Origin: Saprospiraceae bacterium
GTDB lineage: Bacteria > Bacteroidota > Bacteroidia > Chitinophagales > Saprospiraceae
Direction of reading: 5' to 3'
NCBI GenBank assembly: GCA_020436935.1
Contig: JAGQWX010000041.1
Coordinates: 1-45,901 of the forward strand
DNA length: 45,901 nucleotides
Below the pieces are notes generated by a model. It was given only the letters and a program-made list of their open reading frames with translations, did no database searches and had not been told where the DNA came from. The number at the start of each line of letters is the position of its first letter. The stretch's first letter is position 1. The translations under genes were made by a program, and so were the position numbers. This document shows, one piece after another, positions 11,678-37,620 of this stretch.

Positions 11678-11882
11678 GTTATTAGCCACAAAAACTAAGA
11701 TTAAGCTACCCATAACAATTCAAGCTTTTCACTCTAAAAGCTGTGTTTTCAATTTTCTCAGGTAAAAATACCTTTCAAATAATCAAAGTTCTATTTCATC
11801 CTTGCATCGGGTCAATTCATCCATCTCAAAATGGCCTACTAATCTTCGGCATTACCTTAGCTGAAAGATCAATTCAATTCTT

Positions 11883-12866
11883 ATGTTCATTTTTAAAATT
11901 TTTATTCAAAACCAGAGGGCATTTTTGAGGTCTTCAAGTGCTTTTTTGCTGATTACATTGCTCATTTTTTTCATCAAACCTGTCCAGAGTCAAACTCCCT
12001 CCGACGCTATTATGATGAAAAAAATGGAATTTTGTGGATTGTTGTCCTATACCAATGGTCAGTTCAACCGATATTGGGAAGGCGACCTACTTAGAAAAAA
12101 CAAAACCATACAGACCGTACACAGACAGGGTGTAATGCCGATGGTGGCGTTTGGTGTCAACAAATGGCTGAATGTATACGCTGGACTCCCCTACATATGG
12201 ACCTATTCTTCTGTACCCAACGGCGGTTATTTTGCAGGTGCTTCCGGTTTTCAGGATTTTTCACTGGCTGTGAAAGCCTGGATTCTTGAAAAATCCAATG
12301 ACAAAGGCAGAATCAATCTGCTTTCCTCGCTCAGTCTCTCTACTCCGGCAACCAAATACCTGGGTGACTACCTGCCTTATAGCCTCGGACTTGGGGATCA
12401 ACAGATTTTACCTCGTCTTATCGCTGAAGGTGGTCTGGCAAAAGGACCCTATGTCAGAGCAAGTTGGGGCTATCAGTTTCGGGGTTATTCCAAGGCGGAG
12501 CGGGATTATCATTACAACAATGGAAGTGTTTATTCTTATTACATGGATGTACCCGGTGCATGGGTTTATGACCTGACTCTCGGCACATGGTTGTTTCAAA
12601 ATCAATTGAAATTTGAAGCAGCGTACATGGGAACCAAATCAACTTCCGGTGACGATATACGCCCATACAATGCTCCTCAGCCAACCAATAGAACAGAAAT
12701 AGATCAGTACAGCTTACTTGTCCATTTTTATCCTAAACAAGTAAAAGGCGCTGGCATCGTCGTACAATACAATGATGTGATCAGAGGAAGAAATGCAGCC
12801 AATATGACATCAATGTCTGTCGGTCTGACCTATCAATTTTCTATTTTAAAACAAGGAAACCAATAA
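11883..12866 (+). CDS. Outer-membrane beta-barrel protein of unknown function
   Basis: 327 residues. An N-terminal hydrophobic stretch ending in P-V-Q-S-Q looks like a Sec signal peptide preceded by about 15 basic/aromatic residues. The mature part is rich in alternating aromatic/polar strands (W-L-N-V-Y-A-G-L-P-Y-I-W, L-G-L-G-D-Q-Q-I-L-P-R) and ends in a strand closing Y-Q-F-S-I-L, as in transporter- or porin-like barrels. The predicted location is the outer membrane. The ATG at 11883 is the only ATG giving a complete signal peptide; a TTG about 45 nt downstream is an alternative. The next gene, a haloperoxidase/PAP2-like lipoprotein, starts 1 bp after the stop, so the two form an operon and may act on the same exported substrate. 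Confidence 0.75.
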   Translation: MFIFKIFIQNQRAFLRSSSAFLLITLLIFFIKPVQSQTPSDAIMMKKMEFCGLLSYTNGQFNRYWEGDLLRKNKTIQTVHRQGVMPMVAFGVNKWLNVYAGLPYIWTYSSVPNGGYFAGASGFQDFSLAVKAWILEKSNDKGRINLLSSLSLSTPATKYLGDYLPYSLGLGDQQILPRLIAEGGLAKGPYVRASWGYQFRGYSKAERDYHYNNGSVYSYYMDVPGAWVYDLTLGTWLFQNQLKFEAAYMGTKSTSGDDIRPYNAPQPTNRTEIDQYSLLVHFYPKQVKGAGIVVQYNDVIRGRNAANMTSMSVGLTYQFSILKQGNQ

Positions 12867-21310: not shown

Positions 21311-21355
21311 CGTTTATAAGCGTTTATAAACGTTTTTAAACGTTTATAAACGCTT
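21311..21355. repeat. Decamer repeats forming a 38-bp palindrome
   Basis: Four successive 10-bp units of CGTTTATAAA type (21311-21350) run into CGCTTAATCA. Because CGTTTATAAACG is self-complementary, the block also reads as a 15-bp perfect inverted repeat (21318-21332 with 21341-21355) around TTTTTAAA. It lies between two convergent genes and may be a bidirectional terminator, a bent-DNA site or a protein-binding array. Confidence 0.6.
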
Positions 21356-21387
21356 AATCAAATCAAGTGCTCTTTTCCGGTAAAAAA

Positions 21388-35146: not shown

Positions 35147-35381
35147 ATGTTGGCGGTTTTAATTAACATGATCATTTGGTCTCCTACAAAGTTTGCAATT
35201 TTTTAACACTTTTTGGGCCGAGCTGACGTCTTAATTCTGATTATTTCAGATTAAAAACAAACTGTATATAATTTAACAATTTGTGAAAAAGATTGTTTTA
35301 TTAAATTTATTTTGGTTTAACTTTTCATTAAACACGACAATGACGAATTCTTCTAATATTTGTATCATATTATTAAAATTT

Positions 35382-35825
35382 ATGAAATCAAGATTTTTTC
35401 TTTTTGTGTTTTTTGCTGCCTTCTTTGCATCTCAATCTACACAGGCACAAACCATTTCCACACCTAAAACATCTGCCGGTGTCACTGCCAAAGTAAAAGG
35501 TCCACACATGACTTTCACAAAGGAGCTCATTGATCTCGGTAAGGTGAAACATGGTGAAAAGAGAAAATTCAAGTTTGAGTTCGTCAATGATGGTACCGAA
35601 CCTCTTGATTTTGAAATTGTTTCCGGATGCAGCTGTACGACCATTGACTGGCCACGCAATAAAGTGAAAGTTGGTGAAAAGGCCTACCTGGATGTAACAT
35701 TTGACAGCGAAGAAAAAGAACAGTCAGAAACTATTGACATCGACATCTACCTCAGAAATATTGATCCGAAGAACAACAGGCCTTTCTTCAAAATTGTGAA
35801 ATACAAGTTTGAATTGATCAAATAA
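35382..35825 (+). CDS. Exported DUF1573 protein
   Basis: 147 residues from the ATG at 35382; the frame opens with a GTG at 35283, but M-K-S-R-F-F-L-F-V-F-F starts a clean signal peptide ending A-Q-A-Q. The mature part is one Ig-like DUF1573 domain (about 45-140): a strand I-D-L-G-K-V-K-H-G-E-K, F-E-F-V-N-D-G-T-E-P-L, then S-G-C-S-C-T-T and a later P-x-N-K-V-K-V-G strand. DUF1573 domains are common exported modules in Bacteroidota; the fold resembles MSP/ASPM-SPD-2-Hydin Ig-like domains, and function is unknown. It lies just upstream of the palindrome array. Confidence 0.8.
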   Translation: MKSRFFLFVFFAAFFASQSTQAQTISTPKTSAGVTAKVKGPHMTFTKELIDLGKVKHGEKRKFKFEFVNDGTEPLDFEIVSGCSCTTIDWPRNKVKVGEKAYLDVTFDSEEKEQSETIDIDIYLRNIDPKNNRPFFKIVKYKFELIK

Positions 35826-36555
35826 TACGACTACTTTCTTATTCTATTTTTCAGGGGGCATGATTCCATCATCTTGAAAGAGTGAACTTCCGTGCAAATG
35901 CTTTAATACTAAGTATGACGTATATGTCACATTTACGGTAGCTAAATTCCTTTGTGCCTATATCTTCAACTAGCCAATCGTGACGTATATGTCACATTTA
36001 CTACTGCTATATTTCTCCATGTCCTTATACTCAACTACCCTATCATGACGTATATGTCACATTTACTACTGCTATATTTCTCCATGTCCTTATACTCAAC
36101 TACCCTATCATGACGTATATGTCACATTTACTACAGCATTTTACTTTCATTTTTAAACTTTAGACTGAGGTGACGTATATGTCACATTTACTACAACTCT
36201 TTACTTTCACCTTAAACCATTGGGCTTGAAGTGACGTATATGTCACATTTACTACAGCATTTTAATTTCATTTTAAAAACATCAGGGTGAGGTGACGTAT
36301 ATGTCACATTTACTACTGCTATATTTCTCCATGTCCTAATGCTCCAGCTACCCTATCGTGACGTATATGTCACATTTACGGCATTAATTAACCATCCTGA
36401 AATTCTTCGCCATAAATTCCCCGAGCCCAATTCCGCGACTCAATTACTGGTGTACTTTATAATTCCGGCTGTTTATGTTGCGTTTCATCTCTATTCCCCA
36501 GCAAAATTTTAAACCTTTTCATTCAATTAGACTCTAAAAGACAAACCAGTTGCAT
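35826..36555. other. Long intergenic region carrying the palindrome array
   Basis: 730 bp between the DUF1573 gene and the serine hydrolase. About 464 bp (35916-36379) is the eight-copy repeat array. The remaining ~177 bp before the hydrolase contains no clear promoter box or ORF. Confidence 0.8.
35916..36379. repeat. Eight-copy array of a 21-bp imperfect palindrome with two spacer families
   Basis: The core is TGACGTATATGTCA followed by CATTTAC (the two parts overlap at CA), 21 bp in all. It occurs identically at 35916, 35981, 36046, 36111, 36171, 36232, 36293 and 36359. Periods are 65, 65, 65, 60, 61, 61 and 66. The palindromic part GTGAC-N6-GTCAC is symmetric except for one wobble pair. 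Copies 2-7 extend by TAC; the two outermost copies do not. Spacers (39-45 bp) form family A (intervals 1, 2, 3, 7) and family B (4, 5, 6); spacers 2 and 3 are identical. This is not a CRISPR: the repeat is short, spacers are related, and no cas genes are present. Confidence 0.97.
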
Positions 36556-37620
36556 ATGAAAATCAGAACAATTCTCCCAATCCTCTTAATGCTTACCCTT
36601 TTTTCCTGTATGAAGGAGGACCCGATTGTTGAAAATGGATATTATTTTCCTCCCCTTCAGGGTAATTCATGGGATACCACTTCTATGGAAAGTCTGGGAT
36701 GGGACCGTTCTCAACTCCAAAATCTCAGGAATTATTTAAAGGACACCCATACCAAATCATTTATGATCCTGGTCAATGGCAGAATTGTTTTTGAAGAATA
36801 TTATGACGGCCACACCGCCACGACTCCTTGGCAATGGAACAGTGCCGGCAAGACCCTGGTGAGTTCTATCACCGGTATTGCTGAAGAAGACGGGCTTCTT
36901 AAAATCAATGAAAAAGTAAGCGATTATCTGGGTAAAAAATGGACTTCTGCTCCGGAAGCGAAAGAAGATCTCATCAATATACGTCACTTGCTGACCATGA
37001 CCTCAGGCATTGATGACGAAGAAAGTCAGCTCACCATTCCTTCTAAATTGTTGTATAAGGCCGATGCTGGTACCAGGTGGGCCTACCACAATATTTTCCA
37101 GAAATTGATGGATGTCGTTGCCAATGCATCGAACAAGACTTTTGATGATTATTTTAATGAAAAACTGGCAAGTCAAATAGGCATGGATGGCTTTTGGAGA
37201 CATGGCCTCATTTTCAGAATTTACCACAGTTCTGCAAGGTCCATGGCCCGGTTTGGTATACTGATCCAGAACGATGGCAAATGGATGGATAAAAAAATCG
37301 TTCCGAAAGATTTCCTGGATGATGCCCGCAATCCTTCACAGGACATCAATGCTTCTTATGGATATTTCTGGTGGCTCAATGGCAAAAGTCATTTTATGCT
37401 CCCGGGCACCCAGGAGGTTTTTCAGTCGACACTTATACCTACTGCTCCCTCTGACATGTACGCAGCAATGGGCGCAGAAGACCAAAGGCTGTACATAGTA
37501 CCCAGTAAAAAAATGATAGTAATCAGAATGGGGGATGCAGCTTTTCCGCTAAAACCATCATTTGCGGTGTCCGGGTTTGATGGAGAATTGTGGTCAAAAA
37601 TTATGCCCGTAATCCAATAA
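36556..37620 (+). CDS. Serine hydrolase, beta-lactamase (class C/penicillin-binding-like) lipoprotein
   Basis: 354 residues from the ATG at 36556 (a TTG 6 nt upstream is in frame). The lipobox L-F-S-C (C18) predicts a lipoprotein. The beta-lactamase/transpeptidase-like fold is shown by the nucleophile S-x-x-K in N-S-A-G-K-T-L (about 93-99), Y-x-N as W-A-Y-H-N (about 180), and the following helix. Members of this large group (PF00144) include esterases, D-aminopeptidases and class C beta-lactamases. A true antibiotic-hydrolysing role cannot be claimed. It stands alone downstream of the repeat array and is convergent with the cyclase gene. Confidence 0.82.
   Translation: MKIRTILPILLMLTLFSCMKEDPIVENGYYFPPLQGNSWDTTSMESLGWDRSQLQNLRNYLKDTHTKSFMILVNGRIVFEEYYDGHTATTPWQWNSAGKTLVSSITGIAEEDGLLKINEKVSDYLGKKWTSAPEAKEDLINIRHLLTMTSGIDDEESQLTIPSKLLYKADAGTRWAYHNIFQKLMDVVANASNKTFDDYFNEKLASQIGMDGFWRHGLIFRIYHSSARSMARFGILIQNDGKWMDKKIVPKDFLDDARNPSQDINASYGYFWWLNGKSHFMLPGTQEVFQSTLIPTAPSDMYAAMGAEDQRLYIVPSKKMIVIRMGDAAFPLKPSFAVSGFDGELWSKIMPVIQ

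What the first reader, a model, noticed from the sequence alone, without database searches (positions are those of the whole stretch)
35916..36379. Eight-copy palindromic repeat array with two alternating spacer families, not a CRISPR
A 21-bp core (imperfect palindrome GTGAC-N6-GTCAC followed by ATTTAC) is repeated eight times without a single change, while 39-45-bp spacers have diverged into two families in the order A-A-A-B-B-B-A. Spacers 2 and 3 are identical, showing recent unit duplication. The conserved core against drifting spacers implies selection on the core or continual homogenisation. Periods of 60-66 bp are near six helical turns, so palindromes could lie on roughly one face of DNA. 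It may be a multi-site operator, an RNA-hairpin array, a nucleoid/partition site, or a decayed mobile-element terminus (IS21-type elements carry multiple terminal repeats). No known family comes to mind.
Basis: partly seen in the sequence, partly recalled or inferred. Interest (0 to 1): 0.78.

Follow-up and report, generated by a model that had tools for sequence, protein, structure and literature searches.

The report
Genome-wide family of palindromic repeat arrays
The eight-copy repeat is one of fourteen arrays found in this genome that are built around the same 27-base imperfect palindrome, each with its own filler DNA; it resembles the poorly understood STAR and NIME repeats of other bacteria, so it is a clean new example of a known but unexplained kind of DNA.

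Summary
The array is real: eight identical copies of TGACGTATATGTCACATTTAC at 35916-36379, none expected by chance. It belongs to a genome-wide family of about 140 cores (156 at <=3 mismatches, 13 in the control): 14 arrays and 11 smaller sites, 25 places, beside unrelated genes. Arrays share only a ~27-bp block, RTGACGTATATGTCACATYTACnnYAY, an odd-centred imperfect palindrome; spacers are locus-specific. Within arrays cores differ by 4.7% and spacers by 20%, and terminal cores are as intact as internal ones. The core was found in no other genome or collection validly searched. At ribE-priA the closest congener has the same gene order with about 25 bp, against 1.34 kb with an array here. No transposase, integrase or Cas family appears among 30 neighbour proteins, and neither Y1-transposase locus carries the core. 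The architecture matches Staphylococcus STAR elements. Best reading: a lineage-specific STAR-like repeat whose core is kept by sequence-specific recognition, with arrays grown by unequal exchange or slippage between cores. The recognising molecule is unknown.

The parts
35915..36379 (+). whole array: eight cores and seven spacers, starting and ending with a core
35915..35936 (+). core 1 (ATGACGTATATGTCACATTTAC), followed by GG
35937..35979 (+). spacer 1, family A, diverged
35980..36001 (+). core 2 (starts G)
36002..36044 (+). spacer 2, family A
36045..36066 (+). core 3 (starts A)
36067..36109 (+). spacer 3, family A, identical to spacer 2
36110..36131 (+). core 4 (starts A)
36132..36169 (+). 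spacer 4, family B
36170..36191 (+). core 5
36192..36230 (+). spacer 5, family B
36231..36252 (+). core 6
36253..36291 (+). spacer 6, family B
36292..36313 (+). core 7
36314..36357 (+). spacer 7, family A
36358..36379 (+). core 8, followed by GG and unrelated sequence
35283..35825 (+). upstream neighbour, DUF1573 protein (context, not part of the element)
   Evidence: 5 of 5 congeners have a relative, and the closest one (G005) has no array in the stretch read behind it
36550..37620 (+). downstream neighbour, serine-hydrolase (Pfam Beta-lactamase) family protein (context)

Best explanation
This is one locus of a lineage-specific, dispersed, intergenic repeat family of the STAR/NIME kind. The unit that matters is a ~27-bp imperfect palindrome (RTGACGTATATGTCACATYTACnnYAY). 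It is present at 25 places found here and at 14 of them has grown into arrays of the form core-X-core-X-core, where X is DNA peculiar to the locus. Shown here: genome-wide spread, locus-specific spacers, constraint on the core, absence from the relatives searched, and one locus where a congener has no array. Inferred: the arrays grew by unequal exchange or replication slippage between neighbouring same-strand cores, which would explain one, two or three spacer types per array; and the core stays intact because an unidentified protein recognises it as a two-fold-symmetric DNA site. That protein is most likely the one that moves or duplicates the core, or else a chromosome-organising binder. Regulation of the adjacent gene is probably not the shared role.
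For: 156 sites at <=3 mismatches in the own genome against 13 for the reversed-pattern control. 137 sites in 24 clusters examined, 14 of them arrays. Positions 2-22 nearly invariant, centre included; within-array divergence 0.047 core against 0.197 spacer, lower in 14 of 14 arrays. Terminal cores as intact as internal ones (mean mismatches 0.43, n=28, against 0.38, n=97, p=0.46). 27-bp dyad 10/13 or 11/13 pairs (shuffle p 4e-4 and 2.5e-5, centre chosen after seeing the sequence). Core orientation uniform within every array. Neighbours unrelated and tandem, divergent and convergent gene contexts all occupied. In 22 of the 25 places compared, no flank is shared except among loci with other dispersed repeats. 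G005 has the same ribE-priA order with about a 25-bp gap against 1.34 kb with an array here. STAR elements show the same architecture (PMC3532100, passages).
Against: No cognate protein was found. Only one locus gave a clean comparison with a site lacking an array; behind DUF1573 the window's next gene was not in the congener's fetched stretch; for a third locus only 40%-identical relatives turned up, whose surroundings I did not examine, and for a fourth nothing matched. The G005 gap cannot be polarised (ribE was not in the fetched priA loci of G002-G004; G001 gave no priA), so loss in G005 is possible. A preferred 45-48 bp period in 8 of 14 arrays is not predicted by plain slippage. Part of the core invariance could reflect recent spread, although the 20% spacer divergence speaks against that. 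In 7 of 14 arrays at least one flank resembles the spacer (p<=0.01), so those arrays do not end cleanly at a core; for L020 the resemblance is a spacer that runs up to an assembly gap. The flank comparison (E<=1e-4) would miss very short terminal repeats.
Confidence: 0.6

Rival explanations
1. The core is a recombination site of a tyrosine-type recombinase: two 11-bp inverted arms (RTGACGTATAT and ATYTACnnYAY) around 5 bp (GTCAC). The arrays would be gene-less, integron-like strings made by excision and integration at directly repeated sites.
For: 27-bp length and imperfect dyad with an asymmetric centre; all cores in an array point the same way, and in 7 of 14 arrays neither flank resembles the spacer, as if the array ended exactly at a core. 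The resemblance to dif-like anatomy is recalled, not tested.
Against: Only 5 PF00589 matches in the genome; four lie on contigs where no core was found and the fifth is about 69 kb from the nearest core. Uniform orientation also follows from plain tandem duplication.
Confidence: 0.15
2. The element acts as RNA: a chain of small hairpins in untranslated regions. GUGACG-UAUA-UGUCAC pairs with a G-U wobble on the core strand only, and neighbouring cores can pair with each other.
For: Core-strand folding is below shuffles in 13 of 13 arrays tested (L010 left out; at most the first 300 bases, 40 shuffles; z -2.3 to -6.6), and its z is lower than the other strand's in 12 of 13. In tandem-gene contexts the core is sense in 9 of 12.
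Against: Palindromes fold by construction; 9 of 12 is not significant (p=0.15); 6 of 25 sites lie between divergent genes; no Rfam match in the window or at the arrays of 12 loci; stem positions vary too little to test covariation.
Confidence: 0.15
3. REP-like elements moved by a RAYT (Y1 transposase).
For: Short intergenic palindromes; the genome has two Y1_Tnp matches.
Against: No core (<=4 mismatches) in the fetched loci of either Y1_Tnp gene. The one at C141 lies beside different palindromic repeats with GCTAAAGC stems. No conserved unpaired GTAG or CGTC tag next to the stem (profile).
Confidence: 0.05
4. Clustered operator sites for one transcription factor that controls a regulon of about 25 loci.
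For: Dyad symmetry, mostly intergenic location (24 of 25 sites are not contained in a called ORF of 100 aa or more), invariant core.
Against: 5 of 25 sites lie between convergent ORFs (one of these ORFs is unchecked), where no promoter is expected; neighbours are functionally unrelated; invariance of the central six bases and of the ATYTAC tail exceeds usual operator conservation (general knowledge).
Confidence: 0.12

Closest known systems
STAR elements (Staphylococcus aureus repeat), PMC3532100 (abstract start and passages seen)
   Same: Short conserved motif in direct repeat, separated by recurring spacers; intergenic; spacers distinct at each locus; two spacer types at one locus; positions differ between species; function and mode of spread unknown.
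   Different: 14-bp GC-rich motif T(G/A/T)TGTTG(G/T)GGCCC(C/A) with 40-44 bp spacers and a start signature at the locus described; here an AT-rich ~27-bp imperfect palindrome, spacers 23-196 bp, no shared start signature found. The two motifs look unrelated.
Neisserial intergenic mosaic elements (dRS3 + RS), PMC3898611 (passages seen)
   Same: 20-bp repeat with terminal inverted repeats alternating with longer units in intergenic arrays; dispersed through the genome.
   Different: dRS3 is ATTCCC-N8-GGGAAT, almost 700 copies, and one type is a phage integration site; here the centre is conserved, copies are about 140, and no phage or plasmid record searched matched the core.
REP elements with RAYT transposases, PMC3733652 (abstract and passages seen)
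   Same: Small palindromes in high copy, mostly outside genes.
   Different: No conserved GTAG or CGTC tag, no head-to-head or tail-to-tail dimers (cores point one way within each cluster), no core in either Y1_Tnp locus.
BrickBuilt MITE of Porphyromonas gingivalis, PMC4596501 (abstract and passages seen)
   Same: Tandem-repeat arrays dispersed in a genome of Bacteroidota.
   Different: 23-nt repeats without spacers, with leader, tail and small inverted-repeat ends; no shared ends found here.
CRISPR arrays (features recalled)
   Same: Repeat-spacer-repeat layout, palindromic repeat.
   Different: Spacers are near-copies of each other within an array, spacer length differs between arrays, many loci, no Cas family among the 30 neighbour proteins scanned.

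Membership tests
STAR-type elements (as an architectural class) | short conserved motif in direct repeat with recurring spacers | tested here: met
STAR-type elements (as an architectural class) | spacers distinct at each locus, sometimes two types in a locus | tested here: met
   (of 28 pairs among the eight short-spacer arrays, only L011 and L014 look related; L010 and L023 share another dispersed repeat)
STAR-type elements (as an architectural class) | intergenic, next to unrelated genes | tested here: met
   (24 of 25 sites not contained in a called ORF of 100 aa or more; at L015 the last core overlaps the called start of the next ORF)
STAR elements proper (S. aureus) | consensus T(G/A/T)TGTTG(G/T)GGCCC(C/A) | tested here: not met
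   by comparison of the core profile with the consensus printed in PMC3532100
STAR elements proper (S. aureus) | start signature before the first repeat | tested here: not met
   no upstream flank shared between array loci outside other dispersed repeats (22 of 25 places)
REP (RAYT-associated) | unpaired GTAG or CGTC tag at one end of the stem-loop | tested here: not met
   profile; definition from PMC3733652
REP (RAYT-associated) | RAYT gene flanked by the repeat | tested here: not met
   0 of 2 fetched Y1_Tnp loci carry the core
MITE | terminal inverted repeats shared between copies | tested here: not met
   (E<=1e-4, so very short ends could be missed)
MITE | target-site duplication | not tested
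   no empty site alignable at nucleotide level was in hand
CRISPR | spacers unrelated to each other within an array | tested here: not met
CRISPR | cas genes nearby | tested here: inconclusive
   no Cas family among 30 immediate neighbour proteins of 15 loci; genes further away and the rest of the genome were not scanned
NIME/dRS3 | 6-bp terminal inverted repeat with variable N8 centre | tested here: not met
   centre conserved; pattern from PMC3898611
Tyrosine-recombinase site | about 11-bp inverted arms around a short asymmetric centre (feature recalled) | tested here: inconclusive
   dyad present; the limits of arms and centre are inferred
Tyrosine-recombinase site | strand exchange at the core by a recombinase | not testable with these tools
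   needs biochemistry

The most novel reading that the evidence does not exclude
The 27-bp palindrome is itself the mobile and recombining unit: an unidentified recombinase or transposase recognises it, seeds it singly in intergenic DNA and builds core-X-core strings around captured DNA with a preferred step of 45-48 bp. That would make these arrays a gene-less, integron-like or STAR-generating machine whose enzyme is still unknown.
Probability: 0.2. Interest if true: 0.8.

Novelty: new variant of a known kind. Interest (0 to 1): 0.52.

Why it matters
STAR elements are described in the paper seen here (PMC3532100) as having no known function, origin or mode of spread. This genome has a compact, sharply bounded version: 14 arrays and 11 smaller sites with one nearly invariant core and otherwise mostly unrelated sequence, and one locus without an array in a congener. 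That makes two questions testable: what protein or RNA recognises the core, and how a 27-bp sequence reaches new places without its surroundings. If a recombinase proves to be responsible, it would suggest what kind of enzyme to look for behind STAR-type repeats elsewhere.

Tried and rejected
IS or MITE ends: no shared or inverted flanks outside other dispersed repeats (22 of 25 places, without L025a, L025b and L027). RAYT/REP: disfavoured. Polar chromosome motif such as KOPS: core orientation against local GC skew 13 of 25, random. Terminal degeneration expected from homogenisation: not seen. Phage or plasmid origin: no match of a 31-base core query in 72,556 plasmid or 50,697 phage records (no positive control run), none of the whole array in phages, none of the exact 21-mer in viral contigs. 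Rfam: nothing in the window or at the arrays of 12 loci (its three hits are a group II intron fragment and two tRNAs away from the arrays). Helical phasing: not supported by the range of periods.

Relatives: 0 of 59 other genomes at <=2 mismatches, including 5 congeners; with the looser arm pattern one hit in each of 14 of 149 other family genomes, against 10 control hits in 8 of them; two-core pattern in 0 of 394 other class genomes. The exact 22-mer in the genome-contig collection gave 0, but that collection may leave out this genome and its nearest kin. A second genome-contig scan used a pattern with a one-base register error, shown by the zero in the window control run in the same turn. 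A sample of about 220 kb, mostly from congener G005, showed no array of this architecture, but at the density seen here only about half an array would be expected there. One fetched stretch of the own genome (L042) held no core.

Literature: four spellings of the core occur in no paper of the held library; two word searches for such arrays gave no description of this family among the papers listed (15 of 56, 10 of 1,418).

Full report
What is there. The window holds eight exact copies of TGACGTATATGTCACATTTAC at 35916-36379, all on the + strand, with spacing 65, 65, 65, 60, 61, 61, 66 and spacer order A-A-A-B-B-B-A; spacers 2 and 3 are identical. None is expected by chance. The array lies between a DUF1573 gene and a serine-hydrolase gene, both on the + strand.

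It is a family. Searching the window's own genome (5.8 Mb, 181 contigs) with the core at <=3 mismatches gave 156 sites against 13 for the reversed-pattern control; only the first 100 places are listed. I fetched every place seen in the listings. With a cut of 5 mismatches per core and at least one core within one mismatch per cluster, these hold 137 sites in 24 clusters, 14 of them arrays of 4 to 18 cores. A 25th place (L027) has one core with 3 mismatches and was left out of that count. Cores within each array all point the same way. I scanned 30 immediate neighbour proteins of 15 loci (14 arrays and L024). They are unrelated: GH10, LysR, sulfatase, ribE and priA, GSDH pairs, PSD1, WYL and others; 4 of 30 match no Pfam family at E<=0.001; none matches a transposase, integrase or Cas family. 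With ORFs of at least 100 aa called mechanically, 24 of 25 sites are not contained in an ORF; one (L025a) lies in an unchecked 125-codon ORF, and at L015 the last core overlaps the called start of the next ORF. Contexts are tandem sense 9, tandem antisense 3, divergent 6, convergent 5 (L025a counted here because of that unchecked ORF), contig edge 2.

Anatomy of the core. Positions 2-22 are nearly invariant over 137 sites, the central six bases included (T2, A4, T11 and A21 never vary; position 19 is T in 115 and C in 19). Conservation continues more weakly to position 27, and the base before the core is C in 104 of 137. The consensus RTGACGTATATGTCACATYTACnnYAY is an odd-centred imperfect palindrome about C14: 10 of 13 pairs match in the common class and 11 of 13 in the GTTA class (L018, L020, L021); shuffles reach this at 4e-4 and 2.5e-5, with R/Y allowed at the outermost pair and the centre chosen after seeing the sequence. 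On RNA of the core strand the one mismatch of the 16-mer is a G-U wobble; on the other strand it is A-C. Core-strand folding was below shuffles in 13 of 13 arrays tested, and its z was lower than the other strand's in 12 of 13 (L010 not tested; at most 300 bases, 40 shuffles each).

Spacers. Nearly every array has its own spacer sequence. Median periods are 45-48 bp in 8 of 14 arrays; the others are 60-66 (window), 63-77 (L009), 67-85 (L013), mostly 75 (L018), 100-105 (L020) and about 215 bp (L010, with one short unit). Of 28 pairs among the eight short-spacer arrays, only L011 and L014 look related (z 2.8). Within arrays, mean pairwise divergence is 0.047 for cores and 0.197 for spacers, lower for cores in 14 of 14. 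Terminal cores are not more degenerate than internal ones (0.43 against 0.38 mismatches, p=0.46), so exchange between neighbouring units is not what keeps the core intact. In 7 of 14 arrays neither flank resembles the spacer at p<=0.01; in the other 7 at least one does. In the 22 places compared, shared flanks (E<=1e-4) were found only among L010, L017, L022, L023, L026, L028, L039 and L041, and L024's spacer also matches such flanks: these loci contain other dispersed repeats.

Distribution. The core (<=2 mismatches) is absent from 59 other genomes including 5 congeners. A two-core pattern gave 59 matches in this genome and none in 394 others of the class. The arm pattern gave one hit in each of 14 of 149 other family genomes, with 10 control hits. 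The exact core is absent from the genome-contig collection and viral contigs, and blastn found none in plasmids or phages. A further genome-contig scan was spoiled by my own pattern error. At ribE-priA the closest congener found, G005 (PriA 65-66% identical), has the same four-gene order with about 25 bp between the aligned ends of ribE and priA, where this genome has 1.34 kb with an array of at least 10 cores and an assembly gap. Gain here is the simpler reading, but no third species polarises it. G005 also has no array in the stretch read behind its DUF1573 gene, though the window's next gene is not there either.

How it most likely works. Shown: a dispersed short palindrome, constrained far beyond its spacers, in arrays half of which begin and end cleanly at a core. 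Inferred: nearby same-strand cores recombine or slip, multiplying the DNA between them, which would give arrays with one spacer type or with two or three types (window, L017, L020); and a sequence-specific binder keeps the core intact. Because sites occur between convergent, divergent and tandem genes alike, regulation of the neighbouring gene is unlikely to be the common role. I favour a protein that moves or duplicates the core, or a chromosome-organising binder. A recombinase site, an RNA-hairpin chain and a dispersed regulon remain open.

Comparison. The architecture matches STAR elements of staphylococci (PMC3532100, passages): conserved motif in direct repeat, recurring spacers that differ by locus, two spacer types in one locus, species-specific positions, unknown function and spread. 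It partly matches Neisseria NIME/dRS3 (PMC3898611, passages). It is not a member of either by sequence, nor does it meet the tests for a RAYT-type REP (PMC3733652, passages), a BrickBuilt MITE (PMC4596501, abstract and passages) or a CRISPR. I file it as a new variant of the STAR kind.

Confidence. That this is a genome-wide STAR-like family: about 0.9. That the core is held by a DNA-binding or recombining protein rather than an RNA role: about 0.6. That the core itself is a mobile recombination unit: about 0.2.

Noticed in passing
L022:5180-5520 and many places in the own genome: A second dispersed repeat, about 60 bp with GGCTGAGCGAAGCCGAAGCC, is common in this genome and lies beside several core copies (L010, L022, L023, L028); many matches end at the same boundary, about 20 bp from the core.
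   Followed up: partly
L047 (G000:C141, near 11784-12125): A Y1 transposase (RAYT-like) gene beside arrays of other palindromes with GCTAAAGC stems, period about 173-215 bp: probably its own REP family.
   Followed up: partly
L025:11082-11552 (G000:C137): A 97-bp tandem repeat, 4.7 copies, containing GGCGGCTCCCTTTTAGGGCTGGGGTAAACCGCC, next to a single core copy.
   Followed up: no
L009:9427-9597 (G000:C55): Rfam match to a group II intron D1-D4-3 domain close to the contig end.
   Followed up: no
L020 (G000:C126), run of N inside the ribE-priA array: An assembly gap inside an array; the spacer running up to the gap matches the first spacer at the other end exactly over 70 bases, so copy number and even the layout there are uncertain.
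   Followed up: no
window 21311-21356: A 10-bp tandem repeat (CGTTTATAAA, 4.6 copies), not examined.
   Followed up: no
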